Source: a candidate division Zixibacteria bacterium SM23_81 (GTDB lineage: Bacteria > SM23-81). From it: DNA of 64,000 bases. The position numbers and the translations under genes were made by a program. The notes beneath the pieces are model-generated. The model saw only the letters and a program-made list of their open reading frames with translations, was not told the DNA's origin and made no database searches. Position 1 is the stretch's first letter; each line of letters opens with the position of its first letter. Below, piece after piece: positions 24,414 to 48,588 of the stretch. Location of the stretch: contig LJUY01000002.1 of NCBI GenBank assembly GCA_001304015.1, positions 1-64,000 on the forward strand, written 5' to 3'.

Positions 24414-24453
24414 CAGCTCGGGCTCCTCCATGATCTTGGCGTGACTACCTGGG

Positions 24454-25307: not shown

Positions 25308-25325
25308 CTTGAGCTCCTTACGAAA

Positions 25326-25889: not shown

Positions 25890-25917
25890 CTGTTCGCCTT
25901 CCTCCAGCTCGATGAGC

Positions 25918-29377: not shown

Positions 29378-29402
29378 ATCACCTGTGGGTCGTTTTCGAC
29401 CC

Positions 29403-29816
29403 CTAAAGTGTGCCCAGAGCCTTGACGATGGCCGAGATCATGGCCTCCGGTTTCGGAGGACAGCCCGGAATGTACACGTTCACCGGGATAATCTTGTCTA
29501 TGGGGCCAACGATATTATAGGAGTCACGAAAGATGCAAGAGGTGCAGGCACACTGTCCCACAGCGATGACCAGCCCTGGCTTGGGCATCTGATCATAGCA
29601 CTCTTTAACCCTGGGGACGCACTGTCGCGTTAGAGCACCAGTCACCACCAACGCGTCGGCATGCCTAACGCTGCCTATCAGCAGGATGCCAAAACGTTCC
29701 ACATCGAATCTGGGAGTCAGGCAGTCCAACAGCTCGATGTCGCAATTGTTACAGGAGCCCGTGCTCAGGTGAAAAATCCAGGGAGATTTCTTTAAAGGCC
29801 AAGTTTTTAACGCCAA
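29403..29816 (-). CDS. mbhJ: NuoB-like hydrogenase small subunit (MbhJ/EchC type)
   Basis: 137 residues holding the proximal [4Fe-4S] cluster next to the Ni-Fe site. Cysteines are in [25 protein letters not shown] and [12 protein letters not shown]. Like other group 4 small subunits it is short, with no signal peptide and a single cluster. It follows the NuoH-like gene by 43 bases. Confidence 0.93.
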
Positions 29817-29859
29817 CGTTGCTCTCCAAGCTTTTTATCTGAATATTTAACAGACGATT

Positions 29860-30795: not shown

Positions 30796-30806
30796 GAGGT
30801 TCGTCC

Positions 30807-31307
30807 CTATGCTCTTTTCCATGGGCTACGAGCAACAACCCGTGCGCCGAACTGAGGGCGTCCTTCCTCCCACACCTCTGAGAGGTCCTCGAAGGTGAGG
30901 GCTCCTGAAACACAGGTGGCCACACATCTGGGCTCCAGCCCTTGATGGAACCTGTCCACGCACAGATCGCACTTGGCAGAAACATGTCGCAGAAGGTTTT
31001 CGTCCAGCACGCCGAAGGGACAGGCATATACGCAAGACTTGCAGCCCACACATCGGTTGGACCAGCGGCGGACGATCCCGCTCTCGTCCAGCTCCAAGGC
31101 CTCTGCTGGGCAGGCAGCCACACAGGCTGCATTTTGACAATGACGGCAGTGGTGCGGGAGCACCGCCACTTCGGCCACCTCGCCGTGAACCAGATTGAGG
31201 TCCTGGTGGTGGCTCTCCGTGCATGCCGTAGCACAGCTGCGGCAGCCAATGCAGTAGTCCAAATTGAGAACGATGACCTTCTGACCGAGGACGTCCTGGG
31301 AACTCAA
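30807..31307 (-). CDS. Four-cluster ferredoxin subunit (HycB/CooF-like)
   Basis: 166 residues with four [4Fe-4S] motifs: CIGCRSCATACTE near 19-31, CRHCQNAACVAACP near 54-67, CVGCKSCVYACP near 87-98 and CDLC...CVATC near 114-135. It belongs to the HycB/DMSO-reductase B family, which links a molybdopterin-type or other input subunit to a hydrogenase. It lies directly between the molybdopterin-fold gene and the NuoH-like gene, matching its proposed bridging role. Confidence 0.92.
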   Translation of the reverse strand: MSSQDVLGQKVIVLNLDYCIGCRSCATACTESHHQDLNLVHGEVAEVAVLPHHCRHCQNAACVAACPAEALELDESGIVRRWSNRCVGCKSCVYACPFGVLDENLLRHVSAKCDLCVDRFHQGLEPRCVATCVSGALTFEDLSEVWEEGRPQFGARVVARSPWKRA

Positions 31308-31308
31308 A

Positions 31309-33144
31309 TTAACTGCTCTCCTTCGGTTTGGACAGCAAAACCCGTTCTGGCCCCGGCTCTAACTCTCCGGATCGAGGATCCAGGTTCCAGGAGAAAAGCC
31401 TGCGAACCTCCGGAAAATGGGCGGGGGCAGAGATGACGTTATCGGCCAGGCCGCGGTTCGCCAGCACTGGAAAAACAGCTTGCCCCCTCTGGGAAGAAAC
31501 CTGAACCTGGTCTCCCTGTTTTAGTTGCAGCTTCTCCATCAAAGATGGATGGGCCCAGATACAGGGTGCCTGGCAAACTCGATGGGCCCAGCTAAAATTG
31601 CGGGTTAGCGATCCGTCCCCCAGATGGGCTGGCACGGCGGTGGAGACCAAGTAAAGGGGGTAAGCTGTATCCTGGCCTTTCTCAGCTGTGAGCTGCTGTG
31701 TCAGGCGGGATGCCACTTCAGGGAGGATCCTGTCCCAAGGAATTCCTCCGCTCTGGCTCAATTTCTCTTTGACGTCCTGAGGTGTGATGGACAGCTTGGT
31801 GTCTGAAGAGAGCTGTTGAGCCAGGCTCTCAAAGATATCCATCTCGGGACGGGCCAAACCCGGAGCAGGCACGACGGGCTGGAACTCCTGTTTATCGCCA
31901 TTCAAATAGAGTATTTGCCCCCCCTTCTCCGGCCCGATGGCAGCGGGCAAGAGAACGTGAGCTAGCTCTGTGGAAACTGTGGGAAACACATCGGCCACCA
32001 GGAGAAAATCCAATTTTTTCATGGCTTGGTCTAGCTCGTCTGTGGGCATTGCCGAAAGAGGATCCAGACCGAATAACAAGAGTCCCTTGATCTTCCCTTC
32101 GATGATCGACTCCAGAATGTGAGGGCCGGAAATGGCCTTCTGTCCCTTGTCACCACTAGAGAGAACCTGATAGACCCCTCGCCCATTCCAGAATACGGGA
32201 AGATGAAGAAAGGCCAACTTGCCCGGAACCAGACGAGTCAAAACATGTCCCAGAAAGGCGCAGGTCCCCGGCTGACCTAAGCGGCCAAAAAGGTTGGATT
32301 GAATGAGCACTCCATCTTTGGCAGAGTTCAAGGCGGAGGCCACCGTGGCCATCTGCTCCTGGGAGACAGCCGTTGCCTGGGCAACAGCCTCCAGATCCAG
32401 CTTTAAAGAAAACTCTCCAGACTTTTTCTGGGCGGAGGCCGAGAGCAGCTGGGCCAGGCCCGCCAGAACCAGAGGTTCCGTGCCTGGAAGCGGCTGCAGA
32501 TGTTGGTGGGCAAACCCTGCCGTCTGGGTAGCCTGAGAGTCGATGACGAAGAGATGACTGTGACGATCTTTGTATTTAGCCCGCAGAATTCGCTTGGAGA
32601 TGACCGGATGCTCCATGAAGACATCCCCGACCAAAACTATCACCTGGCGTCCCTGCAGGTCTTTCAGACTAAATCCATCATCCCAGCCCAGTTGGGCCAA
32701 GTAATGGAAGGCGTCGCCATCCTCGGGAAAGAGGGCAGCGACGTTTTGAGTTCCTAGGACATCACGGGCCAATTTTCCTATCCCCACAGCTTCCTCCAGG
32801 GTGAGACCACCCCCCGCCAGAACGCCTAAAGCCTCGGGGCCATGTTTCTTGACCAACCCCTTCAAGGACTTGGCGGCTTGGGAAAGGGCCTCCTGCCAGG
32901 GAACATCACGACCCTCTATCTGGGGACAAGTCAGCCGTCGAGGGTGGTCCACCAGCTCGGCTATGGAATTTCCCCGGGGGCAGAGAGATCCCTCGTTGAT
33001 GGGATTCTCCATATCATAATCCACTGAGATGGGGGATGCCTCGGTGAAACGCGGCGATGAGCGTTGCCATTGCAGAATGAGCCCATCTTGAAGGGAACAG
33101 ACGGGACAGATCGTCTTGGATCGATTGGCTTTGGAGCCAGCCAT
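31309..33144 (-). CDS. Molybdopterin-oxidoreductase-fold subunit, probably non-catalytic
   Basis: About 611 residues with the formate dehydrogenase/NuoG fold, but key features are missing. The N-terminal cluster motif is CPVCSLQDG, then GSLCPRGN: the third of four expected cysteines is absent. No Cys or selenocysteine appears where formate dehydrogenases carry their active residue (the corresponding stretch reads NVAALFPEDGDAFHYL). The C-terminal domain (KLQLKQGDQVQVSSQRGQA) is normal. It probably resembles the cofactor-free NuoG domain, a structural electron-relay subunit, rather than a formate dehydrogenase. The ATG at 33144 has AGAGGT upstream and lies 14 bases after the HydG-like gene. 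Confidence 0.8.
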   Translation of the reverse strand: MAGSKANRSKTICPVCSLQDGLILQWQRSSPRFTEASPISVDYDMENPINEGSLCPRGNSIAELVDHPRRLTCPQIEGRDVPWQEALSQAAKSLKGLVKKHGPEALGVLAGGGLTLEEAVGIGKLARDVLGTQNVAALFPEDGDAFHYLAQLGWDDGFSLKDLQGRQVIVLVGDVFMEHPVISKRILRAKYKDRHSHLFVIDSQATQTAGFAHQHLQPLPGTEPLVLAGLAQLLSASAQKKSGEFSLKLDLEAVAQATAVSQEQMATVASALNSAKDGVLIQSNLFGRLGQPGTCAFLGHVLTRLVPGKLAFLHLPVFWNGRGVYQVLSSGDKGQKAISGPHILESIIEGKIKGLLLFGLDPLSAMPTDELDQAMKKLDFLLVADVFPTVSTELAHVLLPAAIGPEKGGQILYLNGDKQEFQPVVPAPGLARPEMDIFESLAQQLSSDTKLSITPQDVKEKLSQSGGIPWDRILPEVASRLTQQLTAEKGQDTAYPLYLVSTAVPAHLGDGSLTRNFSWAHRVCQAPCIWAHPSLMEKLQLKQGDQVQVSSQRGQAVFPVLANRGLADNVISAPAHFPEVRRLFSWNLDPRSGELEPGPERVLLSKPKESS

Positions 33145-33157
33145 AAATACCTCTACC

Positions 33158-33982
33158 CTATCCAAAAAGGTTGGGCACATCCATGATATCGGCATAGCAC
33201 ATGTCGGGCCCATCTTTGCATAGAAAATAGCGTCCCACTATACAATGCCCGCATTTACCCACACCACAGCTCATATTGCGGTTCATGGACAGGTAAATCT
33301 GCTCGGGCTCAAATCCCTCCTCCAGCAGTTTAAGCGTCACGAACTTGAGCATCACCTCTGGTCCACAGGATACGGCGTAACTATTCTTCAAATCGATATT
33401 CAGCTTCTCCAGCAAGACGGTCACCAGACCCACCGTTCCAGTCCAGCCAGGCGCGGGAAGGTCGATGGTCACCTTCATATCAACGCCTTTTTTGCTGCCC
33501 CACTCTTCAAACTCACTGCGAAAACACAGCTCCTGGGGGGTGCGCGCCCCATACTTGATGGACACCCTTTTAAATTTGCCGATGTCATCTAACAAGGTGT
33601 AGATTAAAGATCTCAGGGGTGCCAATCCCACGCCCCCTCCCACCACTAAGACCTCCTTGCCATAAAGCTTCTCTACGGGATATCCCTTGCCGAAGGGGCC
33701 CCTCAGGCCCAGTTTCTGGCCCGCCTTCATCTCATGGAGCGCATCGGTGACCGTCCCCGTGCGCAGAACGGTGATCTCCATTTTCTCGGTCTGGAGGGGG
33801 GATGAAGAAGGTGTAAAGGGAGCTTCCCCCAACCCTGGAACGGTGAGCTCCATAAACTGACCGGCCTTGAAGGGAATGGGCTCCTGGGGCTGTAAAAGGA
33901 AGGTCTTGATGGTGGGCGTCTCCTCGATCACCTCGAGGATTTCAGTCTCTATAGGATAATAGGGGTTTTGCGCTTTGGCCAT
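33158..33982 (-). CDS. HydG/NfnA-like FAD-NAD(P) oxidoreductase subunit
   Basis: About 274 residues of the ferredoxin reductase family found as sulfhydrogenase gamma and NfnA. FAD-binding region KAGQFMELTVPGLGEAPFT, NAD(P)-binding VLVVGGGVGLAPLRSLIY near residues 115-132, and a C-terminal [2Fe-2S] motif SCGVGKCGHCIVGRYFLC. It probably exchanges electrons with NAD(P)H. The ATG at 33982 is preferred over a GTG four codons earlier. It lies 16 bases after the HydB-like gene, its usual partner. Confidence 0.9.
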   Translation of the reverse strand: MAKAQNPYYPIETEILEVIEETPTIKTFLLQPQEPIPFKAGQFMELTVPGLGEAPFTPSSSPLQTEKMEITVLRTGTVTDALHEMKAGQKLGLRGPFGKGYPVEKLYGKEVLVVGGGVGLAPLRSLIYTLLDDIGKFKRVSIKYGARTPQELCFRSEFEEWGSKKGVDMKVTIDLPAPGWTGTVGLVTVLLEKLNIDLKNSYAVSCGPEVMLKFVTLKLLEEGFEPEQIYLSMNRNMSCGVGKCGHCIVGRYFLCKDGPDMCYADIMDVPNLFG

Positions 33983-33998
33983 GTGAGAAGGCACCTGG

Positions 33999-35048
33999 TT
34001 ACTTTTTTGAGGTCTTGTCCGCGGCCAGCAGCTCGCTGAGGCACTGCCGAATGTCTATCTTGCCCATACAGGCCTGGATGCACCGTCCGCATCCTGTACA
34101 GGCTATGGCCTGGTAGTTATCCACGAAATAATCGAACTTGCAGGAGAATCGATTTTGAAAACGGTCTAAAAGCCTCGGCTTGGGGCTAAGATTCCCGGCC
34201 ATACGCCAGTATCCGGGATAGAAACAGACGTCCCAGACCATGGTTCGTTCGGAGTGATCACCCACCTGCTCATCGACCAACAAAAAACACCGGCAGGTGG
34301 GGCAAACGTGGGTACAGGCCCCACACTCGACGCAGGAATAAGCAACTCCCTGCTTGGCCCAAAGGGGGTTGATGAGCTGCTTTTTCACCGCTTCCTGATA
34401 GGGAGCTGCCGCATGAAAGCGAGCGTTGATCTCCTTCACACGCTGGACCACCGCCTTGCGCTTGGCCTTCATCTTCTCCAGAAGACCTTTTTCTGGCTCG
34501 GCAAACAACTCTGAGTGCTCCGCCACCAGGGCTTCACCCTTCTCCGATCCGACCTCCACCAGAATCTGTCCGTCAAGAGGTGCCAGATTCAGATCAAATC
34601 CAGATTCTGGATATGGTTTGTAGCCCACCTCGGTGCAGAAACAGGTCTCCCAAGGCTCGGTACAATCACAGGTAATGATGGTGCTGTTTTCCCTTTTGGC
34701 TTGATAAAAGGGATCCATGACGTCGTCCGTAAAAACCCGGTCCAAAATCTGAAGAGCCTTCAGACCACAGGCCCTGATGCCCACCACGGTGCTCTTTGTT
34801 GCCGTGATCTCCGCTGGTGAAGCCGAGGGGTACTGGGCCACCTTTGTGCGAGGCGGGAAGAAAAGCGCCTTGGTGGTTTCCAGGGCACGAGCTTTTTCAA
34901 TACAGACTCTGGTCAATTCCTCTTTGGGCAGCCGCTCAAAATGAACCTGGCCTTCCTGATCCTCCACATTGGCATATAAGACGCTGTCGGCCAGAATTTT
35001 CTCGAGGAAAAACTCAAACTTCTCGCGATCGGTGACCCACACTTTCAC
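33999..35048 (-). CDS. HydB-like iron-sulfur subunit (sulfhydrogenase beta type)
   Basis: 349 residues. It shows the family pattern: VVGIRACGLKALQILDRVF, a CDCTEPWETCFCTEVG segment near 150-165, and two C-terminal cluster motifs CVECGACTHVCPTCRC near 238 and CTGCGRCIQAC near 322. In archaeal sulfhydrogenases it passes electrons between the gamma flavoprotein and the hydrogenase. It is the first gene of the operon, about 43 bases after the predicted transcription start. The start codon is GTG. Confidence 0.9.
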   Translation of the reverse strand: MKVWVTDREKFEFFLEKILADSVLYANVEDQEGQVHFERLPKEELTRVCIEKARALETTKALFFPPRTKVAQYPSASPAEITATKSTVVGIRACGLKALQILDRVFTDDVMDPFYQAKRENSTIITCDCTEPWETCFCTEVGYKPYPESGFDLNLAPLDGQILVEVGSEKGEALVAEHSELFAEPEKGLLEKMKAKRKAVVQRVKEINARFHAAAPYQEAVKKQLINPLWAKQGVAYSCVECGACTHVCPTCRCFLLVDEQVGDHSERTMVWDVCFYPGYWRMAGNLSPKPRLLDRFQNRFSCKFDYFVDNYQAIACTGCGRCIQACMGKIDIRQCLSELLAADKTSKK

Positions 35049-35136: not shown

Positions 35137-36984
35137 TCATCTCAATAAATATTTGCCAATACCTTGCGAAGCAATCTTTGCATCGGCAATTGCCGTGACC
35201 GCATCTAAATTGGTATTTACGATATCTCCTCCGGCAAAAACTCCGGGAATGGAGGTCATCCCATTTTCATCAACTTTGACTTTTTTCATCGCCGTAAATT
35301 CAAACTTATCAAGGAGCTTTTTGGGTATAAATGAAAAATCCGGAGCCTGTCCAATGGCCTCGATAACCGTGTCGCCTTCCAGAAACATCTCTTTCTCCTC
35401 ATAAAAGGTCGGTGCAAATCGCCCCTGATCATCGAACACAGATTTTACCTTCACGCAAAGAAGCCCTTTGACCTGGCCTTTCTCATCCAAATGTACCTCT
35501 TTAGGACCCCAACCGGGATTGAATTGTACCCCTTCAGCTTTAGCCTCTTCGATCTCTTCTTCAGTAGCCGGCATGATATCCCAATCTTCCAGAGAGACCG
35601 TCTTGGTGATCACTTTTTCATCCGAATACTGTATATTCTGGAGTCTTAAAGCCTCTCGAGCTACATCCATGGCCACATTTCCGCCGCCGATAACAATGAC
35701 TTCTTTTCCTACTGTACGTTTCTCTCCAATTTTATTATCTCTCAGGAAATCGAGGGCCAATACACATTTCTCGTAATTTCTCACCTTTGTCGAACGGCTT
35801 ACCGTGGTTCCGATTCCTAAGTAAAGTGCATCATAGTCCTTTAAGAGGTCCTCGAACGATATATCCCGACCGACATTGGTATTGAACTTGAATTCAACCC
35901 CCAAAGAGGCTATATAGCTTACATCTCTATCAATGCTTTCAATGGGTAATCGATAGAGTGGCGGCCCGATGCGCAACATACCGCCTCCGCCGGGCAACTC
36001 ATCGAATACAACAACCCTATGGCCTTTCAAGGTCAGGAAATAAGCCACCGCCAAACCGCCCGGTCCCGCTCCGATGACAGCGATGTTTCTGCCTGAGGGC
36101 TTGGCTGGCTTTTGCTCCAATGTCGACTTGTAATCTTTAATGGTATCCGCCACATATCGTTTCAGCCACCTGATGGCCAAGGCCTCACCTCTCAACCGCA
36201 ATGAGCAGGCATCCTCGCAATGTTTCATACAGACCCTTCCACAGATGGAAGGAATGGGATTGTCCTCGAATATCTTTTGCAGGGACTCGTCAGGTTTGTC
36301 TTCGTAAATGGCGTGAATGTATTCGGAGATCTTCATATGTGCCGGACAGGCTTCCTCGCAGAGTTTACACTCAAGACAACGTGCCGCTTCTCTTCTGGCC
36401 TCTTCTTTATTGTATCCGATGACCTGCTCGACAAAGGAGAGTTTCCTTTCCTCTGGGGCCACTTCAGGCATTTGGATACGGTCAGGCTCAAACAGGGCAT
36501 ATCGCAGATCAGAAGCAAATCCTTCATATTCTTCCCTGCGGTGCGATAGACTTGCTTTTAACACAGAATACTGCTCTGGGGGGAGAAACTTTTCTTTATC
36601 CGTTTTTTCGTCTTTGGGCATGAAGACAAAAGTGTTGGCATCAAAATGGATGTGGAAATAGTCCCTGGAAAGCCGTAGGGAGCCTGGAGGGCATATATCC
36701 ACACACAATCCGCAGAAACAGCATCGTCCGTAATCCAGTTGAGGCCTCTCATTTTTCTGCCCCGTTTTGGTCTCTAACCCAGATATTTCGACCATGTTGA
36801 TGGCCTCGTTGGGACAAATATCAGCGCAATTCCCGCAACCAGTGCACTTCTCCCAATCGTTGAGATGAAATCCCCTATATCTTTGCGCGGGTTCTTTCGA
36901 CTCAAAGGGATACCTCAACGTCTTCGGTTTTTTGAAAAGATAACCTGCTGATTTGAATGGACTGAGTAGACTTCGCTTTGCCAT
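35137..36984 (-). CDS. Fusion of NuoI-type ferredoxin and GltD/NfnB-type NADPH flavoprotein
   Basis: 615 residues in three parts. Residues about 1-130: NuoI-like domain with CTGCGNCADICP and CCFCGLCVDICPPG. Residues about 195-290: the helical [4Fe-4S] region of GltD/NfnB, CLECKLCEEACP and CGRVCMKHCEDAC. Residues about 300-615: FAD/NADPH domains, GAGPGGLAVAYFLTLKGHRV, GGGNVAMDVAREALR and GVFAGGDIVNT. It occupies the MbxN position, the last gene of the Mbx-like operon. The fusion would couple NAD(P)H directly to the quinone-free complex, with ferredoxin as the other partner. It ends 10 bases before the next operon's promoter. Confidence 0.9.
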   Translation of the reverse strand: MAKRSLLSPFKSAGYLFKKPKTLRYPFESKEPAQRYRGFHLNDWEKCTGCGNCADICPNEAINMVEISGLETKTGQKNERPQLDYGRCCFCGLCVDICPPGSLRLSRDYFHIHFDANTFVFMPKDEKTDKEKFLPPEQYSVLKASLSHRREEYEGFASDLRYALFEPDRIQMPEVAPEERKLSFVEQVIGYNKEEARREAARCLECKLCEEACPAHMKISEYIHAIYEDKPDESLQKIFEDNPIPSICGRVCMKHCEDACSLRLRGEALAIRWLKRYVADTIKDYKSTLEQKPAKPSGRNIAVIGAGPGGLAVAYFLTLKGHRVVVFDELPGGGGMLRIGPPLYRLPIESIDRDVSYIASLGVEFKFNTNVGRDISFEDLLKDYDALYLGIGTTVSRSTKVRNYEKCVLALDFLRDNKIGEKRTVGKEVIVIGGGNVAMDVAREALRLQNIQYSDEKVITKTVSLEDWDIMPATEEEIEEAKAEGVQFNPGWGPKEVHLDEKGQVKGLLCVKVKSVFDDQGRFAPTFYEEKEMFLEGDTVIEAIGQAPDFSFIPKKLLDKFEFTAMKKVKVDENGMTSIPGVFAGGDIVNTNLDAVTAIADAKIASQGIGKYLLR

Positions 36985-37012: not shown

Positions 37013-38155
37013 TTATCTGTCTATTTCTGGAGCGACGACGTATAAGCTGATCATGATATTTCCCACATCGGCGATGCTGGCATTCTTCAATGCCTTTTCC
37101 AGAACCGTCAAGCCATGGGGATAGGAAGGGGTTCTGAAGTGTACCCGATACGGTTTATCCTCACTATTACTCACTAAATAAAGGCCCAGCTCTCCGCGGG
37201 AAGACTCAACCCTCACATAAGCCTCTCCTTTTGGGATATTCCATTTGAACGGGTTAGGGATTCTGTGATAAACCTCTCCCTCAGGCATAGCATCAAGCAG
37301 TTTGAAGATCATGTGAACGCTTTCGATCATCTCGTCCCGAATCACCCAAATCCTGGAGTAGGCATCGCCCTCTTCTCTGGTAGGGACTTCCCAGGGCACT
37401 TTATCGTAAGCGGCATAGGGCGCAACCTTCCTGATATCGTACTTCATGCCGGTGGCCCTCAGAATTTGACCTGTCGCTCCCATTTCCTTTGCCTGCTCCT
37501 GGCTTATTTTCCCTACTCCTTTGGCCCTCTCGTAAAACAGACGGTTCTCAAAAAAAGTGGCATCGTAATCCGGAACACAACCGCCTATAGAATGCAATGT
37601 GCTGACCATCTTATCTTTAAATCCCTCTGGAAAATCACGCCTCACCCCACCAGGCCATATGTAGATGTGATACACTCTGCCGCCGGTAAGCTCCTCGAAG
37701 AGGTCTAGTAGGAGGTCCCTGTGATACATGGCCCACTGAGCCACAGTATCGAAACCAAGCATGTTGGCATAAGCCCATAAACCAAATAGATGAGAGCCTA
37801 TCCGGGCAAGCTCAAGATAAATGCTTCGCACATAATGAGCTCTTTGCGGCACTTCAATTCCGGCCAGTTTCTCGACGGCCATCGCGTAGACCATTTCCAT
37901 CGAGTCTGGTTCTACTACATTTATCCTACACACCATAGGAAAATTCTGTATCCAGGTTCTGTATTCCATGAGCTTTTCGAACCCGCGATGGAGATAACCA
38001 GGGTTGGCAATGGCTTCCGAAATGCGATCGCCTGTGACCTTCAAGGTGATGCTGAAATTTCCCACCATTCCCAAATGCTGAGGACCGAAATATAATTCCA
38101 ACTCTCTTGGCGGGTGCTCTTTGTCGACAAGAGATTTTTTGCTCACAGTCTCCAA
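37013..38155 (-). CDS. NuoD-like subunit without nickel ligands (MbxL/MbsL type)
   Basis: 380 residues, homologous to NuoD and hydrogenase large subunits. It begins ELELYFGPQHLGMVGNFSI and has GYLHRGFEKLMEYRTW, GSHLFGLWAYANMLG and GGVRRDFPEGF. The first cysteine pair is replaced (MVCRINVVEPDSM) and the C-terminus ends VVAPEIDR with no second pair, so it cannot hold a Ni-Fe site. In Pyrococcus the equivalent subunit belongs to a ferredoxin-oxidising complex reducing polysulfide/sulfane sulfur or NADP. Overlaps the MIP18-like gene by 13 bases. Confidence 0.92.
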   Translation of the reverse strand: METVSKKSLVDKEHPPRELELYFGPQHLGMVGNFSITLKVTGDRISEAIANPGYLHRGFEKLMEYRTWIQNFPMVCRINVVEPDSMEMVYAMAVEKLAGIEVPQRAHYVRSIYLELARIGSHLFGLWAYANMLGFDTVAQWAMYHRDLLLDLFEELTGGRVYHIYIWPGGVRRDFPEGFKDKMVSTLHSIGGCVPDYDATFFENRLFYERAKGVGKISQEQAKEMGATGQILRATGMKYDIRKVAPYAAYDKVPWEVPTREEGDAYSRIWVIRDEMIESVHMIFKLLDAMPEGEVYHRIPNPFKWNIPKGEAYVRVESSRGELGLYLVSNSEDKPYRVHFRTPSYPHGLTVLEKALKNASIADVGNIMISLYVVAPEIDR

Positions 38156-38445
38156 CCTTCTTCAGCCTTCTTCATAAACTGAGCACGCTCTTGTGGGTTC
38201 ATCTCCCCTACATCTATCACTACTTCGATAGCCCGATCCAAATCGGCTAAAGCCTTTTTTATACTGTTCATCAAATACTCTTTAATAGGTACCCCTGAGT
38301 ACGGCAATTTTAGGGTAAGACTCACTTGATTTTCATGAAATACCACGTCCTCGATCATCCCCAAACCAACTAAACTATCGTCAATCTCAGGATGCATCAC
38401 CTCAGCTAACGACTGATCGACCTGCTCTTGGGTAATCTTTTTCAT
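38143..38445 (-). CDS. MIP18/DUF59-family protein inside the Mbx-like operon
   Basis: 100 residues of the MIP18 (PaaD/SufT-like) family: VMHPEIDDSLVGLGMIEDVV near 16-35 and VSLTLKLPYSGVPIKEYL near 41-58. Relatives assist iron-sulfur cluster assembly. No Cys is present; many relatives carry one. Its place between the NuoC-like and NuoD-like genes suggests help in maturing this cluster-rich complex. Confidence 0.85.
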   Translation of the reverse strand: MKKITQEQVDQSLAEVMHPEIDDSLVGLGMIEDVVFHENQVSLTLKLPYSGVPIKEYLMNSIKKALADLDRAIEVVIDVGEMNPQERAQFMKKAEEGWRL

Positions 38446-38478: not shown

Positions 38479-38994
38479 TTACTTCTTTTTCTCCTCGACC
38501 ACAGGGATGTTATCAAAAACTTCTTTGACATATTCTCTGGTATCGAAGTCCTTTCTAAAAGGAGGTATACTATAGTCCCTTTCCAGGAGAAGAGGTATCT
38601 GCCTGGGATGACCTTCAAAGTGTATTCCGAAAAGTTCATGGAGTTCACGTTCATAGGGCTCGGCATTTGCAAAAACAGGGATTATCGTCATAAACTGCGG
38701 GTTTTCCCTGGAGATCCTGGTCTTCAGGATGATATTTGTTTTCTCCTTTATCGAATATTCATAATTGTCCTGGAGATAGGCGGAGAGAATGTAAACCAGC
38801 TCGAACTCGTTGTCCTCTATCCAGTCTACACAGGATACCAGGCCTAAATGCTGGTATCCTCCAGTCTTCAAAAAGTTTAAGACAGACAGGACTGCGTCTT
38901 TTCTGGTGGTTATCACCATTCTGTCGTCTTCCGGAGCAGCGACCTTGATGTCACTGAAGGTTGCCTCGAGTTTTTCCTTAAGCGATCTGTTCAA
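38479..38994 (-). CDS. NuoC-like 30 kDa subunit (MbxK type)
   Basis: 171 residues. GLVSCVDWIEDNEFELVYIL and PYERELHELFGIHFEGHP (NuoC signature) are near residues 52-71 and 113-130. The C-terminus ends in a charged tail, VVEEKKK. It overlaps the NuoB-like gene by 17 bases. Confidence 0.92.
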   Translation of the reverse strand: MNRSLKEKLEATFSDIKVAAPEDDRMVITTRKDAVLSVLNFLKTGGYQHLGLVSCVDWIEDNEFELVYILSAYLQDNYEYSIKEKTNIILKTRISRENPQFMTIIPVFANAEPYERELHELFGIHFEGHPRQIPLLLERDYSIPPFRKDFDTREYVKEVFDNIPVVEEKKK

Positions 38995-39547
38995 CTTGAT
39001 CCTCTAGTGGGAATAATGGTGGCCATTCAAGTTCACCAAAAAGCTGTTCCTGATTTGCTCGATACAGATGGTAATTGCTTCGATAGCGTTTGTAGCCGTC
39101 TGCCATATCCTTATCAATCAATGTCCACAGATGGGTGACGGCCACAAAGATGGCTTCGGGCCTGGGCATACACCCGGCAATCCAGCCATCTATGGGAATG
39201 TATTTATCCAGACGCTTTATGGTATTATACGAATCCCAATACATCCCTCCGTTTATGGGACAGGAGCCGAAACCCACGGTGAACTTCGGTGACGGCATCT
39301 GTTCGTATGTCCTGATGATGGCCTTCAAGGTCTTCACAGAAACATACCCTGTGATTAAAAATAGATTCGCCTGCCTGGGAGTAGCCACCGGAATGACCCC
39401 AAATCTCTCCGCATCCCAACGGGCTGTTATGACGGGCGGCACCTCGATAATTCCACAGCCCGTGCAAAAATAGATGGCATGGAGGGAATACTTGTGTCCC
39501 ATTTTTGCTGGGGCCTTTAACCATTTGATGATCTGATTTCGATCCAT
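38978..39547 (-). CDS. NuoB-like subunit (MbxJ type)
   Basis: 189 residues. Cluster cysteines occur in FCTGCGIIEVPP near 28-39, FGSCPINGGMYWDSYN near 91-106 and GCMPRPEAI near 124. The CTGCGIIE form matches Mbx/Mbh small subunits. It is four bases downstream of the NuoH-like gene. Confidence 0.92.
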   Translation of the reverse strand: MDRNQIIKWLKAPAKMGHKYSLHAIYFCTGCGIIEVPPVITARWDAERFGVIPVATPRQANLFLITGYVSVKTLKAIIRTYEQMPSPKFTVGFGSCPINGGMYWDSYNTIKRLDKYIPIDGWIAGCMPRPEAIFVAVTHLWTLIDKDMADGYKRYRSNYHLYRANQEQLFGELEWPPLFPLEDQVEQIA

Positions 39548-39550: not shown

Positions 39551-40441
39551 TTATCTCCTTATGATCAACACGATTATCATCCCAATAAAGGCAATAAGTG
39601 TAGGCCATCGCCACAGATACCTCATCGCCTGCTCGATCCTCAAACGGGGCAAAGCGGCATTGATGAACAGACCCAGGACGAACACCACCAGCATTTTGAG
39701 AAAAAAAATCGGTGGATTGCCGGCGCCGCCCAAAAACAGGTTGACAAAAAGGGCGATGCCGATGAACAGATTCAAGCCATGCTGGATAGTTGCCAGGGCC
39801 AAGAATGAACCGCCATATTCCACCATGGGCCCAGATGAAATTTCCTGCGCCGCCTGAGTGATTTCGAAGGGCCTGATGCCCAAGATTGCTGGCAGTATGA
39901 GAATATAGGCGATTCCAGATAAGAACAAAGGCAAAGACGTGAGAGCCCAACTTGTATTTTGCTGCATGCTGACGATATTGACAATTGATAGGGTCTTATA
40001 GTGTGTCATCACCGCCAGCAGGATAACTAATAAGGGAACCTCATATCCTAAGGCGAGGGTCAACTTACGGGAGATACCTATGCTGGCATTGGGATTCGCC
40101 GCCTCACCGCCACTGAGGGCAATCCCGAAGGGTGCAAGAAGCATCACATAAAGAATCACCAGCATACCACCTGAGCTACTTAAAGGGCAGATTTTGCCCA
40201 TGGGCAAAAACAAAATTAACACCAGTGAACAGGCTAAGGAGAAGAGGACGCCTAAGGTGAACATATTTCCGTGGCTGACACTCTTTTGACTGAACAGTCG
40301 AATGACATCGATGACCGGCTGGGTGATCGGCGGACCATAACGCCAATGGATTCTTGCCATGATCTTCCTGGCCAATCCTAGAAAAAACATCCCAATCAGC
40401 AACGCTAAAATCGGGGCTAGAATAACCTCGACAATCCGCAT
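39551..40441 (-). CDS. NuoH-like membrane anchor (MbxM type)
   Basis: About 296 residues, eight membrane helices. Loops YGPPITQPVIDVIRLFSQK and RPFEITQAAQEISSGPMVEY are the NuoH signatures. The ATG at 40441 overlaps the upstream stop as TAATG and gives the expected MRIVEVILAPIL start; the 48 extra residues in the longer frame are read-through. Confidence 0.92.
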   Translation of the reverse strand: MRIVEVILAPILALLIGMFFLGLARKIMARIHWRYGPPITQPVIDVIRLFSQKSVSHGNMFTLGVLFSLACSLVLILFLPMGKICPLSSSGGMLVILYVMLLAPFGIALSGGEAANPNASIGISRKLTLALGYEVPLLVILLAVMTHYKTLSIVNIVSMQQNTSWALTSLPLFLSGIAYILILPAILGIRPFEITQAAQEISSGPMVEYGGSFLALATIQHGLNLFIGIALFVNLFLGGAGNPPIFFLKMLVVFVLGLFINAALPRLRIEQAMRYLWRWPTLIAFIGMIIVLIIRR

Positions 40442-42297
40442 TACCACAGGCTCCATTTTAATTGAACAAAAATCAACAAAGCCAAAAACAGCACGATGTA
40501 CATCACATAGTGACCGATATAACCAGTGTACATCTGGCGTATTCCATGGCAAACGTTCTGGGTCCATCCTGCCAGCTTGATACAAAATCCGCCGATAAAA
40601 TCTTTGAAATAAGGAGAGATCATCCGGTACAGAGGATTATAAAAATCAACCGTGTAATGATATCTATCTTTTGGAATGGCTGCTCCGGCCGCATAGGTGT
40701 CCTCTTGAGCAACAGGCACTGCTTTTGGACCTGCTTTAAAAATGAGCCAGACGATAACACAGGCTGCCACAACCGCGGCAAAAATGTTAATGGTATTCAA
40801 GGTGCCGGTCTCTGAGGCGATTCCCCAAGTGGTGACGTTCAAGGATTGGAAACCGAATGATGTCCCAATCGTGTTGATAACCTTAAGAGGTATTCCAGGA
40901 AGGATACCAAAGAGAAGAATAACAAGGGAGAGAATGATCATGGGAAGTTGCATGCTGAAGGGGGCTCTTGCGACCATTTTATATTTTTCAGGAAGCTGCC
41001 CCAAAAAAATATGATGAACAAACTTATAGCAATAAAGAATGCACCCCCAGGTTCCAATTAAAGCAGCAAAAGCCAGAAATGGATGACCCTCAAGAATCAG
41101 TGTCTTGTAGATCAACCATTTGGAGACAAATCCATTAGTCAAAGGGATCCCAATCAGCCCCGATATGCCCAGCAGCGCCCCGATAAAAGAAACGGGCATC
41201 CTTTTGATGAGGCCTCCCAAGCTGTCCAGATCCCTTTGTCCTCCTGTTCTGTACTGAACAGCTCCCACACTCATGAAAAGAAGGACGATATATACGGCGT
41301 GGTTCAGAGTATGGAATATCCCTCCCGCCAGCCCCAGACTGGTACCGAATGCAATCCCCAAAATCATATAGCCCCCTTGCCCGATGGCAGACCAGCCCAG
41401 CAGCTGCTTGGCATCGTTCTGCAGGAGAGCGATAAAGGTCGAGACCACTATGGTAATGGCCCCCAGCCAGGCAAGGATATAGTTGAACTTGAAAATTCCT
41501 GGTCCTAAATTGAGTGCCCTGGCAGCGCCGACAATCACGTATATGATGAGAAGGAAACCGTACATGCCCATTCGGGTCAGCATACCGGATAGGACACCAT
41601 TGAAAGAAGTGGGGGACTCTGCGTATGCATCAGGCAGCCAGGTATGAAGGGGCATCAGGGCATTTTTAATCGCAAAGGCAATGCCGAAAAGAATGAAGAG
41701 GAATAAGAGATATCCCGAGGAAGCAGAGGGAACCAACTTCGAAAGTGTCGCGATATGTAGCGTTCCGTATATGGCATAGAGGGACAACATGCCAATAAGC
41801 ATTGACACAGAGCCCACGATGGACATGATGATATACTTCATCCCGGCCCCTAAGGCGCGTCCACGGTTGTAGCTGATCAGCAGGAAGGTTGACCAGCTCA
41901 TGATTTCCCAGAAGACAAAAAAGGAGACAAAATCACCAGCGAAAACGATGCCCAGCATTGAGGCATTGGCCAATAGCAACATCAGATAATAGAAATCGGT
42001 TCTTTCCCTGTCCTTCACGTAGTCCCAGGAGAAGATGACAGAAAGAGCGCCTAAAATGGAGATGGCCATGGCAAAGAACCAGGCGAGCATGTTTGTTCTT
42101 AAAATCAATGGCAAACCCAAGAAGCCAAAATAAAAAGGACTTTCCATGGTTTTGCCATATAAGAAGGCCATCATCACCGCCAAGGCCACAGAGCTGATGA
42201 CAGCAAATGGGTCTCGAATCTGAGGACAGATCTTGCCGAAAAGGTAACTAAGCAATGCGCCACCAAAGGCAACTATCAGCAAAAGTTCCAAACTCAT
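40441..42297 (-). CDS. NuoL/MrpD-like ion-pumping subunit (MbxH' position)
   Basis: 618 residues, about 16 membrane helices. FFVFWEIMSWSTFLLISYN (channel Glu), KNALMPLHTWLPDAYAESPT (channel Lys/His), GWSAIGQGGYMILGIAFGTS and IGIPLTNGFVSKWLIYKT. The C-terminus has an extra soluble loop (GPKAVPVAQEDTYAAGAAIP near 545-564) and a last helix. It overlaps the MnhD-like gene by four bases. Two large channel subunits in a row match H and H' of archaeal Mbx. Confidence 0.92.
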   Translation of the reverse strand: MSLELLLIVAFGGALLSYLFGKICPQIRDPFAVISSVALAVMMAFLYGKTMESPFYFGFLGLPLILRTNMLAWFFAMAISILGALSVIFSWDYVKDRERTDFYYLMLLLANASMLGIVFAGDFVSFFVFWEIMSWSTFLLISYNRGRALGAGMKYIIMSIVGSVSMLIGMLSLYAIYGTLHIATLSKLVPSASSGYLLFLFILFGIAFAIKNALMPLHTWLPDAYAESPTSFNGVLSGMLTRMGMYGFLLIIYVIVGAARALNLGPGIFKFNYILAWLGAITIVVSTFIALLQNDAKQLLGWSAIGQGGYMILGIAFGTSLGLAGGIFHTLNHAVYIVLLFMSVGAVQYRTGGQRDLDSLGGLIKRMPVSFIGALLGISGLIGIPLTNGFVSKWLIYKTLILEGHPFLAFAALIGTWGCILYCYKFVHHIFLGQLPEKYKMVARAPFSMQLPMIILSLVILLFGILPGIPLKVINTIGTSFGFQSLNVTTWGIASETGTLNTINIFAAVVAACVIVWLIFKAGPKAVPVAQEDTYAAGAAIPKDRYHYTVDFYNPLYRMISPYFKDFIGGFCIKLAGWTQNVCHGIRQMYTGYIGHYVMYIVLFLALLIFVQLKWSLW

Positions 42298-43763
42298 CCT
42301 AAAACGCTCCTGATATATTCCATTCGGTGAAGAAGTTCTGATGCGGCAGAATTCAAAACCTCGATAACAAGCTGGGGATAAATTCCCATCACCAAGATAA
42401 ATGCCACAAAGACAACCATCGGAATTAAACCGGCCACTGGAGCATCTTTCCTTTCTGAATTTCCATTTGCTTTCTTAAAATAAAGAACCTGCACCACACG
42501 GAAGAAATAGGCCCCTTCAATGACCGTGCCCAGGAGCACAAGCCCGATAAGCACGGTGAAGAGAATCTCCTCTTTGGCCAGGGCAGCGCGAACAATCAGA
42601 AACTTGCTGGGAAATCCAACAAAGGGGGGCAGACCTACCAGGGAAAACGCACCGATGGTGAAGGCCAGGGAGGTCAAGGGCATTCGCTTCCCCATGCCCT
42701 CGAAAGCAGAAATTTCCATCGAACCGCTTCGATAGATCATGTACCCAGCAGTTAAAAACAGCAGGCCTTTGCCCAAGGTGTGACTGACCAGCTGGAACAG
42801 CCCTCCGGTAAGAGCATAAGAGGTTGCTATGGCCATGGCAAATACAATTAATCCCATCTGTCCGATGCTGGAATACGCAAGCATCCTTTTGATGTTGTTC
42901 TGGGCGAAAGCACACATTTCGCCGATTAAGAGAGTCAAGACTCCCAAGAACGCAAAAAACATGAACATATTCGTAGCACCAAATATCGTGAAGAGCACCC
43001 GGACCACGGCATAAAGACCGACTTCAATGGCGATCCCTGAGAGAATCGCACTGATCGATGACGGGGCAGAGGAATGTGCATCGGGCAACCAGGCATTCAA
43101 CGGAAATATCGCTGCCTCGACGCCCAGCCCGGTGATGATAAGCACCATAGGCACAAAGACGGAGATGGAACTGGCTGATTCGATTTGCTGAGCCAGGTCC
43201 GCCATGTTGAGGGTACCGAAAAGTCCATACAGCAATCCGATGCCAATCAGCAGAAAACTTGATCCAACCGCACCTTGAATCAAGTACTTGATGGCTGATT
43301 CAATACCGGCTCGATCTCCAATATAGGCCACCAGAGCATAGGACGAAATGCACAGAATTTCAAAAAAGACAAACAGGTTAAAGATATCCCCGGTCAGCAC
43401 CACCCCTGTGGCTCCGGCAAGAAGCAGAAGATAGAGCATATGGTACTTCTCTTTCGGTCCTTCGGTGATATAAGCCAAGGCATAGACGGCTACCAAAAGC
43501 CCTGCAAGAGCGATAAGAGCGGAAAACAGAACCCCGACGGGACCGGCGACAAGATTGATGCCAAAAGGAGGAGGAAAACCTCCAATCTCGACCACGATGG
43601 CCTGTTTTAAAACGTCAGGAATGAGCCTTAAGGCAAGTGCAAAGTTAAAAATGAAGGCAACCACCGGAATGTATTTTACAATTCTTTTTGAAATTAGCCC
43701 AAATAAAGGCAGGGCAAAGGCCAGTCCTAAAGGGACAGCAATTAAAAGAACAGGATTTACCAT
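42294..43763 (-). CDS. mnhD: MnhD/NuoN-like ion-pumping subunit (MbxH type)
   Basis: 489 residues, about 14 membrane helices. FVFFEILCISSYALVAYIG (channel Glu), EAAIFPLNAWLPDAHSSAPS, SSIGQMGLIVFAMAIATSY and VGLPPFVGFPSKFLIV. The usual Lys of the KxxxxPxxxWLP segment appears as Glu-Ala (VEAAIFPLNAWLP), and the His as Asn, so the proton route may differ. It overlaps mnhC by seven bases. Confidence 0.92.
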   Translation of the reverse strand: MVNPVLLIAVPLGLAFALPLFGLISKRIVKYIPVVAFIFNFALALRLIPDVLKQAIVVEIGGFPPPFGINLVAGPVGVLFSALIALAGLLVAVYALAYITEGPKEKYHMLYLLLLAGATGVVLTGDIFNLFVFFEILCISSYALVAYIGDRAGIESAIKYLIQGAVGSSFLLIGIGLLYGLFGTLNMADLAQQIESASSISVFVPMVLIITGLGVEAAIFPLNAWLPDAHSSAPSSISAILSGIAIEVGLYAVVRVLFTIFGATNMFMFFAFLGVLTLLIGEMCAFAQNNIKRMLAYSSIGQMGLIVFAMAIATSYALTGGLFQLVSHTLGKGLLFLTAGYMIYRSGSMEISAFEGMGKRMPLTSLAFTIGAFSLVGLPPFVGFPSKFLIVRAALAKEEILFTVLIGLVLLGTVIEGAYFFRVVQVLYFKKANGNSERKDAPVAGLIPMVVFVAFILVMGIYPQLVIEVLNSAASELLHRMEYIRSVLG

Positions 43764-44134
43764 CGTAGCTCCTTTATACGCCGTAGATCAAGAACACCGT
43801 AATGATGATAAAGCCTGATGGCCAAAGAGAGAGCTAAAGCCAGAACCGCCACGCCGATGACAATCGCCGTCAGTACCAGCGCCTGAGGAACGGGATCAAC
43901 CATAGGTGCGGCTTCCATGGCAGACTTTGAAAAGATAGGGGCCGTTCCTTTACTGATATAACCCACGGAGACTAGAAACAGATTCACACCTGTTTCAAGA
44001 ATGCTCAGACCGATGATCACCTTGATCAGGTTATGTTTGACCAGCATGATGAAAAGCCCGATGAAGATGAGCCCAAATGATCCTATGTAATATACATGAT
44101 TCTGCAAAAAATCAAACGCGTTGGAAATGCCCAT
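43757..44134 (-). CDS. mnhC: MnhC/NuoK-like antiporter subunit
   Basis: 125 residues, three membrane helices. LVKHNLIKVIIGLSILETGV, VGYISKGTAPIF and VDPVPQALVLTAIVIGVAV are the signatures. The C-terminal tail ends in basic LDLRRIKELRW. About 67 bases separate it from the upstream E-F fusion, with no hairpin obvious. Confidence 0.93.
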   Translation of the reverse strand: MGISNAFDFLQNHVYYIGSFGLIFIGLFIMLVKHNLIKVIIGLSILETGVNLFLVSVGYISKGTAPIFSKSAMEAAPMVDPVPQALVLTAIVIGVAVLALALSLAIRLYHHYGVLDLRRIKELRW

Positions 44135-44201: not shown

Positions 44202-44888
44202 TCATTCACTTTCCTCCACTAAATGGTCGATCACGCCAGCCAGCTCGGATCCCACTTTAAATCCGATGGCGATATAGATGATCGGAATGATACCTGCGCT
44301 GAATAACGAATTGAGCTCTCCCTTGGGCAGATAGTTGGAGAGAAAATAACCCCCACCCACGGCCAAACCCACCAGACCAACTACGATAAAAACCAATCCA
44401 CCCAGTGATTCCACCGTTTTGCTGGCAGTTTCGCTGATCCGTCTTCCCCGACACCCCAGGTACACCAAGACAAAGGCAGAGGCGACGACAGCACCTCCCT
44501 GAAAACCGCCACCAGGAGTGAGATGTCCATGGATGAAAATATAGGCGCCAAAAAGAAGGATAAGTGGAAATAACAATCGGCAGCCTGTATACAGCACCAA
44601 GCTTGCCGGCTCAACGTCTCTTTTTTCCTTTTTCCTTCGAGTCGCCAAAACAGCGCCCAGGCCAATCGCTGCCACAAAGAGGACGGTCACCTCGCCGAGG
44701 GTATCAAATCCCCGATAATTGACCACCACCGAGGTGACGATGTTGGAAGCTCCGGTCTGTTCCTTTCCTCTACCAATATAGTATTCTCCGACTTTGGTCT
44801 TGGCAGCTCCAAAAGGAATCTCATTCAGAGCTGTGGCAATACCCCAGGCAAGGACTGATATTAGAAAAAGGCTGATGATGGCTCTCAT
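44202..44888 (-). CDS. Fused MbhE-MnhB (MbhF)-like antiporter subunit
   Basis: 228 residues. Residues 1 to about 85 are MbhE-like (QTGASNIVTSVVVNYRGFDT), with a basic linker RRKKEKRDVEP. Residues about 95-228 are MnhB/MbhF-like (HGHLTPGGGFQGGAVVASAF). In the other operon MbhE is fused to D and MnhB stands alone. It overlaps the D-like gene by four bases. Confidence 0.9.
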   Translation of the reverse strand: MRAIISLFLISVLAWGIATALNEIPFGAAKTKVGEYYIGRGKEQTGASNIVTSVVVNYRGFDTLGEVTVLFVAAIGLGAVLATRRKKEKRDVEPASLVLYTGCRLLFPLILLFGAYIFIHGHLTPGGGFQGGAVVASAFVLVYLGCRGRRISETASKTVESLGGLVFIVVGLVGLAVGGGYFLSNYLPKGELNSLFSAGIIPIIYIAIGFKVGSELAGVIDHLVEESE

Positions 44889-45124
44889 TCCTCATATCTC
44901 TTGGTTCGCCTGATGGCGATAATAAAGACAGCGGTGACCAATGCCGCTCCGATGGACGCCTCTGCCATGGCCACATCCGGGGCTTGTAGGAAATAAAACA
45001 AGATCGCCGCGATCAAGCTCACCATGCAGGAAGCTATGACCGCGCTCATTAAATCTTTGAAAATGAGTGCTGCAATAGCAGCGCTGAGCATTAAAAGGGT
45101 CAGTAAGGAAACCACGAATATCAT
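44885..45124 (-). CDS. MbhD/DUF4040-like antiporter subunit
   Basis: 79 residues, three membrane helices. LQAPDVAMAEASIGAALVTA is the family segment with conserved Asp and Glu. It overlaps both neighbours by four bases. Confidence 0.9.
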   Translation of the reverse strand: MIFVVSLLTLLMLSAAIAALIFKDLMSAVIASCMVSLIAAILFYFLQAPDVAMAEASIGAALVTAVFIIAIRRTKRYEE

Positions 45125-45453
45125 GTTTTCTCCCGAAATTCCTCAAAGTCTTTGGTTTTATCCACCACGCTTCTATCGCACAGAGAAACGCCGCTTTTAC
45201 GGGAAGCTCTGGCGATGGCATGGCTTGAGATGGGATTAGTAACCAGCACAAACAGGGCAATAAGCAAAGCTTTCCATAACCAGGCCGGCTCCATGATGCC
45301 CACTCCAACAATGGTGAGAAAAGCACCTAATGTCGTGCATTTTGTTCCTGCTTGAATTCTGTTATAGACATCGGGCAATCTAAGGACACCAAAATTTCCG
45401 AGAAAGAGAAATATGATTCCCACTCCGGTGATGGCCACGCCGAATACATCCAT
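45121..45453 (-). CDS. mnhG: MnhG-like antiporter subunit
   Basis: 110 residues, three helices. NFGVLRLPDVYNRIQAGTK, TLGAFLTIVGVG and TNPISSHAIARASRKSG are the signatures. One base separates it from mnhF. Confidence 0.92.
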   Translation of the reverse strand: MDVFGVAITGVGIIFLFLGNFGVLRLPDVYNRIQAGTKCTTLGAFLTIVGVGIMEPAWLWKALLIALFVLVTNPISSHAIARASRKSGVSLCDRSVVDKTKDFEEFREKT

Positions 45454-45714
45454 TTAGATTCCCCTTTCCAGAAATCGAGCAATAGCGACTAATCCGACAA
45501 AGGCCAATAAAGAATACACTAAAGCAACATCCAAGTAGACATATCTTTTAAAAACAAAACCTAAAAGCACAAGTAAAGCGACGACAGTGGTGGTCATGGT
45601 ATCCACCGCCACAGCTCTATCCGGAGCAGTAGGACCTCTCAACATACGTAAAAGACACAGAAAAATTCCTATGGCCATGATGGCTAAAAAAACGACCGCA
45701 ATTGTCTGGCTCAT
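45454..45714 (-). CDS. mnhF: MnhF-like antiporter subunit
   Basis: 86 residues, three helices. LRGPTAPDRAVAVDTMTTTV is the family signature. It overlaps mnhE by four bases. Confidence 0.92.
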   Translation of the reverse strand: MSQTIAVVFLAIMAIGIFLCLLRMLRGPTAPDRAVAVDTMTTTVVALLVLLGFVFKRYVYLDVALVYSLLAFVGLVAIARFLERGI

Positions 45715-46232
45715 GAAAATATCACCCTTAAATATTTCTCAAACCTTTCCCCAATGATCTTTGTCGCCTCATCCATATTTTCTGACTGAACGTTGATCCA
45801 ATGAATGAGGAGCGTATCACCCAGGATGTCCAATGTAAAAGTGCCTGGCGTCAAGGTAATCGAATTGGCCAGGATCATCTTGGCAATATCCTGTTTCAAT
45901 GTCGTCTTAATCACCACGATTCCCGGTTTGATGGGCATCTTTGGATGAATCACCCGATAAGCCACATCGAGATTTGCCTTCACAATTTCTATGAAGAGCA
46001 CGATAGTAAAGGCGATGGAGAAGGCGATTCTTTTCAAGCTTATCGGCGGCAGTCCTAATTTGAGATAGTTTTTAGATAAAATTAAGGAAAGAATGAGACT
46101 GAGCAGAATGCCAACGCTGAATTCTTGCCAGTGAAAGCTTGAGGTGAGGGCTAACCATATGATCAGCAGGATGAAAAAGAGATAAAAGAAATTTCTTCTC
46201 TGATGGGATGCTTCAGGGGCTGTCTTTGCCAT
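45711..46232 (-). CDS. mnhE: MnhE-like antiporter subunit, first gene of the Mbx-like operon
   Basis: 173 residues, two membrane helices and a soluble tail. IVKANLDVAYRVIHPKMPI, ILANSITLTPGTFTLDILG and LLIHWINVQSE are the signatures. AAAGGACAT precedes the ATG. It heads the Mbx-like operon (45711-46232 down to 35137). No consensus promoter is visible in the roughly 100 bases upstream. Confidence 0.92.
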   Translation of the reverse strand: MAKTAPEASHQRRNFFYLFFILLIIWLALTSSFHWQEFSVGILLSLILSLILSKNYLKLGLPPISLKRIAFSIAFTIVLFIEIVKANLDVAYRVIHPKMPIKPGIVVIKTTLKQDIAKMILANSITLTPGTFTLDILGDTLLIHWINVQSENMDEATKIIGERFEKYLRVIFS

Positions 46233-48581: not shown

Positions 48582-48588
48582 GGGATCC

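What the first reader, a model, noticed from the sequence alone, without database searches (positions are those of the whole stretch)
35137..36984. NuoI ferredoxin fused to an NfnB/GltD-type NADPH flavoprotein in an Mbx-like operon
The last subunit of the Mbx-like complex carries, in one chain, the NuoI clusters, the GltD/NfnB cluster region and FAD/NADPH domains. This would make the ion-pumping complex use NAD(P)H and ferredoxin directly, unlike the archaeal Mbx/Mbs subunit set, whose last subunit has only the ferredoxin part.
Basis: partly seen in the sequence, partly recalled or inferred. Interest (0 to 1): 0.75.

Follow-up and report, generated by a model that had tools for sequence, protein, structure and literature searches.

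The report
NADH-input subunit of bacterial MBS/Mbx pump
This bacterium's sulfur-reductase-like ion pump, a relative of respiratory complex I, ends in one protein that joins the pump's ferredoxin-like electron wire to a flavin enzyme that probably takes electrons from NADH; the same kind of gene is already catalogued in Thermotoga maritima and sits in the same place in many other bacteria.

Summary
Window 35137-36984 (-) is an intact 615-aa ORF joining a NuoI/MbsN two-cluster domain to a complete GltD/NfnL-type flavoprotein. It is the last gene of a full Mbx/MBS operon, closest among solved structures to Pyrococcus MBS. It is no artefact: 61 relatives under over 20 phylum-level labels were found, and 55 of 57 with upstream sequence follow MbxL directly. 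All 16 cluster cysteines and the FAD and dinucleotide motifs are invariant in 52 of 52 aligned proteins. It is not new as a gene: NCBI holds the family (PRK13984), and Thermotoga maritima has it. Two corrections: the Arg-Arg typical of NADPH-dependent GltD/NfnL is Leu-Glu here (Glu in 51 of 52), as in NAD-dependent PreT (Arg-Glu), so NADH is the likelier donor; and nothing supports direct ferredoxin use as well. The three cysteines that hold the catalytic MBS cluster are invariant in relatives, while the fourth, dispensable in MBS, is sometimes lost. Quinone-site residues are absent and no menaquinone genes were found. Best reading: an NADH-linked, ion-pumping polysulfide (sulfane sulfur) reductase, widespread in bacteria and biochemically untested.

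The parts
35137..36984 (-). Fusion protein (MbxN plus GltD/NfnL-type flavoprotein), 615 aa, related to NCBIfam PRK13984
   Evidence: ORF; full-length NCBIfam match; PDB matches; AF2 model and structural match
36535..36984 (-). NuoI/MbsN-like domain, residues 1-150, two 4Fe-4S clusters (C47 C50 C53 C57; C88 C91 C94 C98)
   Evidence: Pfam; PDB match MbsN 6u8y_N; Cys invariant 52/52
36130..36486 (-). GltD/NfnL-type cluster domain, residues 167-285, eight Cys (C203 C206 C209 C213; C248 C252 C256 C260)
   Evidence: Fer4_20; Cys invariant 52/52
35146..36093 (-). FAD and NAD(H) Rossmann domains, residues 298-613 (GAGPGG; GGGNVAMDVAR; AGGD)
   Evidence: Pyr_redox_2; motif conservation; structural match to NfnL
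35587..35592 (-). L465-E466 at the end of beta-strand 2 of the dinucleotide domain, where NADPH-dependent GltD/NfnL has Arg-Arg: predicted NADH selectivity
   Evidence: L 52/52, E 51/52; RR in E. coli GltD, RE in PreT; strand 459-464 in the model
37013..38155 (-). MbxL (NuoD/49 kDa type, no NiFe ligands)
   Evidence: Pfam; best PDB match MbsL 6u8y_L, 342 bits
38143..38445 (-). PaaD/SUF-associated small protein between MbxK and MbxL
   Evidence: weak NCBIfam matches; also in L014 and L062
38479..38994 (-). MbxK (NuoC, 30 kDa type)
38978..39547 (-). MbxJ (NuoB type) with MBS-type proximal-cluster cysteines C28, C31, C96, C126 (= MbsJ C25, C28, C93, C123)
   Evidence: best PDB match MbsJ 6u8y_J, 222 bits against 121 for the next; conservation
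39551..40585 (-). MbxM (NuoH type); the true start is probably downstream of the listed TTG, since the ORF overlaps MbxH'
40441..42297 (-). MbxH' antiporter-like subunit
42294..43763 (-). MbxH antiporter-like subunit
43757..44134 (-). MbxG (MrpC type)
44202..44888 (-). MbxE (MrpB type)
44885..45124 (-). MbxD (small membrane subunit; assigned by position and sequence character)
   Evidence: ORF
45121..45453 (-). MbxC (MrpG type)
   Evidence: PF03334
45454..45714 (-). MbxB (MrpF type; assigned by position and sequence character)
   Evidence: ORF
45711..46232 (-). MbxA (MrpE type)
   Evidence: PF01899

Best explanation
The protein is the electron-input subunit of a bacterial MBS-type complex. NADH reduces the FAD; electrons pass through two GltD-type 4Fe-4S clusters, then the two MbsN/NuoI clusters in the same chain, then the MbxJ proximal cluster, which reduces polysulfide (sulfane sulfur), while the membrane arm pumps ions. 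The flavoprotein module thus takes the place of ferredoxin in archaeal MBS and of NuoEFG in complex I. Shown here: the fusion, the complete operon, its conservation, the intact cofactor sites, and the NADH-like and MBS-like residues. Inferred: NADH as donor, polysulfide as acceptor, the electron route, pumping, and the direction of reaction.
For: Full Mbx/MBS subunit set in one operon; MbxL and MbxJ have MBS 6u8y as best solved match and the N-terminal domain has MbsN as best match for that part. Fusion directly after MbxL in 55 of 57 usable loci. Sixteen cluster Cys plus FAD and dinucleotide motifs invariant in 52/52. Leu-Glu replaces Arg-Arg at the end of beta-2; E. coli PreT, annotated NAD(+)-dependent, has Arg-Glu and GltD has Arg-Arg. 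In P. furiosus MBS the proximal cluster is held by three Cys of MbsJ (C28, C93, C123), itself reduces polysulfide, and C25 is dispensable (PMC7684303). In relatives the three equivalents are invariant in every sequence read (42/42, 43/43, 44/44), while the C25 equivalent is Ala or Ser in three loci: the pattern MBS predicts. Complex I quinone residues are replaced in MbxL (alignment) and no MqnA/D or MenD was found. Fusion distances track MbxL and MbxJ, r 0.92 and 0.93, Mantel p 0.001. T. maritima mbxA rises 4.36-fold with sulfur (PMC9431562).
Against: I found no biochemistry for any member. From general knowledge NADH to S0/polysulfide spans only tens of millivolts, leaving little energy for pumping compared with ferredoxin. 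PMC9431562 assumes T. maritima MBX uses ferredoxin. The N-terminal domain of the model has low to moderate confidence, and cluster distances could not be measured. NADH selectivity rests on one pair of residues. The genome is 92.6% complete, so missing quinone genes are not proof.
Confidence: 0.62

Rival explanations
1. One reading: the complex uses NADPH and also docks ferredoxin directly, so the chain links both carriers to the pump.
For: GltD/NfnL homology; the N-terminal clusters are those that accept ferredoxin electrons in MBS (PMC7684303).
Against: The Arg-Arg of NADPH-dependent relatives is replaced by Leu-Glu. A ferredoxin entry on the same wire would let ferredoxin reduce NAD+ without passing the coupling site. 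No ferredoxin site was detected.
Confidence: 0.15
2. The complex is an ion-coupled ferredoxin:NAD+ oxidoreductase (Rnf-like role) with no sulfur substrate.
For: A pyridine nucleotide site and ferredoxin-type clusters are both present. PMC6349859 describes P. furiosus Mbx as a ferredoxin:NADP+ oxidoreductase, an older view than the MBS structure paper.
Against: That electron route would not pass MbxJ and the MbxL/M coupling chamber, and the three-Cys MBS cluster pattern would have no reason to be conserved. The genome already has an RnfD/NqrB-type protein, so probably Rnf.
Confidence: 0.12
3. The flavin bifurcates or confurcates electrons between NADH, ferredoxin and polysulfide, as in Nfn.
For: The closest structural relatives are bifurcating NfnL chains. 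An AsrB/NfnS-like flavoprotein gene lies downstream at 33158-33994.
Against: That gene follows the fusion only in this family (window, L009/L011), where it lies beside the FdhA/Mbh genes; no homologue of it was seen at the other loci. Without a second acceptor branch at the FAD, Nfn-type bifurcation has no exit.
Confidence: 0.06
4. In sulfur oxidisers (Chromatiales, Beggiatoaceae, Thiobacillus) and perhaps more widely, the complex runs in reverse, using ion motive force and reduced sulfur to make NADH.
For: Members with intact motifs occur in MAGs labelled as Pseudomonadota sulfur bacteria; a rhodanese gene precedes the Thiomargarita copy.
Against: Nothing here speaks to direction; most other members come from anaerobes.
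Confidence: 0.05

Closest known systems
NCBIfam NF010590 / PRK13984 'putative oxidoreductase' (Thermotoga maritima member)
   Same: Match over the whole fusion, same domain order and length; other Mbx-linked members also match full length, 687-888 bits
   Different: The window protein scores 699 bits, under the curated cut-off of 946; the family carries no stated function
Pyrococcus furiosus MBS (formerly Mbx), PDB 6u8y
   Same: Same membrane and peripheral subunits; same three-Cys proximal-cluster pattern; MbxL, MbxJ and the MbxN-type domain closest to it
   Different: MBS takes electrons from ferredoxin at MbsN and has no flavoprotein part
NfnL / NfnI large subunit (5jfc, 4ylf)
   Same: Residues 163-615 superpose on it, Z 45; same FAD, dinucleotide and cluster layout
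   Different: Part of a soluble bifurcating enzyme with NfnS; has the Arg-Arg pair; first cluster motif differs in spacing
E. coli PreT (NAD+-dependent dihydropyrimidine dehydrogenase subunit)
   Same: GltD-type flavoprotein with Glu at the position of E466
   Different: Partners PreA; no NuoI-like domain; not in an ion-pump operon
AegA / YgfT ferredoxin-GltD fusions
   Same: Ferredoxin-type clusters ahead of a GltD flavoprotein in one chain
   Different: About 30% identity; known as soluble proteins unrelated to Mbx operons (general knowledge)

Membership tests
PRK13984 (NF010590) | Full-length match to the family profile | tested here: met
   699.5 bits, residues 1-613 against 6-606 of 611
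PRK13984 (NF010590) | Score above NCBI's curated equivalog cut-off (946 bits) | tested here: not met
   699.5 bits; other Mbx-linked members, 687-888 bits, also fall short. So a relative in the wider family, not NCBI's strict equivalog
MBS/Mbx complex | Subunits A, B, C, D, E, G, H, H', J, K, L, M and an N-type ferredoxin domain in one operon | tested here: met
   B and D by position and sequence only
MBS/Mbx complex | Three-Cys proximal cluster (MbsJ C28, C93, C123) with a fourth, non-essential Cys (C25) | tested here: met
   C31, C96, C126 invariant in relatives; C28 replaced in 3 of 42
MBS/Mbx complex | No NiFe ligands and no complex I quinone-headgroup residues in the L subunit | tested here: met
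   alignments to MbsL and Nqo4, read by eye
MBS/Mbx complex | Polysulfide reduction with reduced ferredoxin and ion pumping | not testable with these tools
   needs biochemistry
Nfn (bifurcating, NfnL plus NfnS) | Paired with an NfnS-type subunit | tested here: not met
   No such gene found beside the fusion in relatives outside this family
NADPH-dependent GltD/NfnL | Arg-Arg at the end of beta-2 of the dinucleotide domain | tested here: not met
   Leu-Glu in 51 of 52, Leu-Gln in one

The most novel reading that the evidence does not exclude
A whole bacterial branch of the complex I superfamily, spread over more than 20 phylum-level labels and including sulfur oxidisers, is an NADH:polysulfide ion pump whose NADH-input module was gained independently of NuoEFG, by fusing a GltD/NfnL-type flavoprotein to the MbsN subunit.
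Probability: 0.5. Interest if true: 0.6.

Novelty: new member of a known kind. Interest (0 to 1): 0.4.

Why it matters
If right, bacterial Mbx complexes are NADH dehydrogenases for sulfur rather than ferredoxin-driven ones, which changes the energy budgets proposed for Thermotoga and for many uncultured anaerobes. It would also be a second, independent way of linking NADH to a complex I-type pump, useful for testing how complex I gained its input module.

Tried and rejected
Assembly artefact: rejected by identical fusions in independent assemblies. NiFe hydrogenase: the L subunit lacks the ligands; the true Mbh lies next door at 20728-31307. Quinone acceptor: quinone residues absent and no MqnA/D or MenD found. 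AsrA/AsrB/FdhA genes (31309-35048) as part of the flavoprotein module: they follow the fusion only in this family and lie beside Mbh. Literature on T. maritima TM1217 or PRK13984: ten searches found no description of the flavoprotein part in the open papers held; one likely source, the 2021 review PMC8165549, is not held. The T. maritima sequence could not be fetched, so its Leu-Glu pair and operon position were not checked here. The first paralog comparison used the wrong strand and was repeated. A pattern search for the MbxJ motif could only return loci that had the CxxC, so it was repeated without that bias; this showed the first Cys is lost in three loci. Model coordinates are not exposed, so cluster distances were not measured. 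A rhodanese search of the own genome found none, so no sulfur-carrier link was shown there.

Full report
What is there. The ORF at 35137-36984 on the minus strand encodes 615 aa. Its N-terminal part (residues 1-150) is a two-cluster ferredoxin domain closest to MbsN of P. furiosus MBS among solved structures, and residues 163-615 form a complete GltD/NfnL flavoprotein. The structural match to the NfnI large subunit is Z 45.3, rmsd 2.1 over 435 residues. The N-terminal part of the model has low to moderate confidence.

Surroundings. The gene ends a same-strand run of genes from 46232 down to 37013 plus the fusion. It has the full MBS set: MrpE-, F- and G-type subunits, D, E, G, two antiporter-like subunits, M, J, K and L, with one extra PaaD-like gene. 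MbxL and MbxJ match MBS subunits much better than complex I or MBH subunits. Downstream lie AsrA- and AsrB-like genes, a molybdopterin oxidoreductase and a genuine Mbh NiFe hydrogenase operon. The genome has only these two 49-kDa-type complexes, one RnfD/NqrB-type protein, and no detected menaquinone enzyme.

How general it is. A scan of 84,980 species genomes returned 62 loci: 61 members (39-87% identity) and one distant GltD-like hit, L072. The method finds relatives that keep at least one exact peptide of the window protein, so more distant members, T. maritima's among them, are missed. The records carry more than 20 phylum-level labels, among them Zixibacteria, KSB1, Aerophobetes, Cloacimonadota, Bacteroidota, Planctomycetota, Eisenbacteria, WOR-3, Caldisericota, Campylobacterota (Hippea, Desulfurellales), Spirochaetota and Pseudomonadota. 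MAG labels can be wrong; two carry archaeal names. Four loci start inside the gene. Of the other 57, 55 have MbxL immediately upstream; the two exceptions are Beggiatoaceae. In a sample of 296 Bacteroidota genomes only two had a close MbxJ, and both had the fusion. Distances of the fusion track those of MbxL and MbxJ (r 0.92 and 0.93). The flavoprotein parts form one group against the GltD-type outgroups used (SH-aLRT 99, quick tree, long outgroup branches).

Cofactor sites. In 52 aligned full-length members all sixteen cluster cysteines, the FAD GxGxxG glycines, the GGGN-A-D-R dinucleotide motif and the C-terminal Gly-Asp are invariant. One feature does change. At the end of the second strand of the dinucleotide domain, NADPH-dependent relatives have Arg-Arg: E. 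coli GltD, the own-genome paralogs L002, L004, L005 and L006, and the Nfn-type chains aligned. The fusion family has Leu-Glu (Leu 52/52, Glu 51/52). E. coli PreT, annotated NAD(+)-dependent, has Arg-Glu, with the Glu in the same column. An acidic residue there is the usual mark of NAD(H) binding (general knowledge of Rossmann folds). The prediction is NADH, not NADPH; it rests on sequence alone.

Acceptor side. In MBS, electrons run from ferredoxin through the two MbsN clusters to a proximal cluster held by MbsJ C28, C93 and C123. That cluster itself cleaves polysulfide, and MbsJ C25 is dispensable (PMC7684303). In the window protein the equivalents are C31, C96, C126 and C28. Across relatives C31, C96 and C126 never change (42/42, 43/43, 44/44 readable), while C28 is Ala or Ser in three loci. 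This is the pattern expected of an MBS-type three-cysteine cluster and not of a four-cysteine one. Polysulfide is therefore the likeliest acceptor, though it was not tested.

Mechanism. I infer the route NADH, FAD, two GltD-type clusters, two MbxN clusters, MbxJ cluster, polysulfide, with pumping by the membrane arm. Whether ferredoxin can still enter is unknown. I think it less likely, because ferredoxin electrons could then run to NAD+ without passing the coupling chamber. The weak point is energetics: NADH to polysulfide releases little energy, so the pump would have a low ion yield or work near equilibrium.

Known or new. PRK13984 is an existing NCBI family and T. maritima is positive above its cut-off. 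T. maritima mbxA is induced by sulfur, and that paper assumes ferredoxin as donor (PMC9431562). I found no open paper that discusses the flavoprotein part, but key reviews were not readable here. The gene kind is known; the NADH reading, if unpublished, is the new element.

Noticed in passing
L043 11800-12336, L068 10996-11571, and matching places in L040, L041, L045, L046, L048, L066: In the Caldisericum/Desulfurellales branch a 179-191 aa protein starts at or next to the fusion's stop codon and weakly matches the intein splicing domain (PF14890, 7 proteins, best E 1e-9) as a stand-alone gene.
   Followed up: partly
L052 5474-6019, L053 11806-12321, L058 11788-12261; similar-sized ORFs in L061 and L064: In Pseudomonadota a rubrerythrin-like gene lies just downstream of the fusion, sometimes overlapping it; in Thiomargarita (L058) a rhodanese gene lies just upstream.
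   Followed up: partly
window 20728-35048: Genuine Mbh-type NiFe hydrogenase operon with Mrp subunits, a CooF-like ferredoxin, a molybdopterin oxidoreductase and AsrA/AsrB-like genes, resembling the cluster reported for Saganbacteria RX5A (PMC6349859).
   Followed up: partly
window 53291-63695: HdrA/B/C-like genes beside a second NiFe hydrogenase (PF00374), next to hydrogenase maturation genes from 47206 to 55260.
   Followed up: no
window 38143-38445: PaaD/SUF-associated gene inside the Mbx operon; detected between K and L in only a few relatives (L014, L062).
   Followed up: no
L042 and L050: One Spirochaetes MAG (G012) carries two fusion genes and three Mbx-type MbxJ copies.
   Followed up: no
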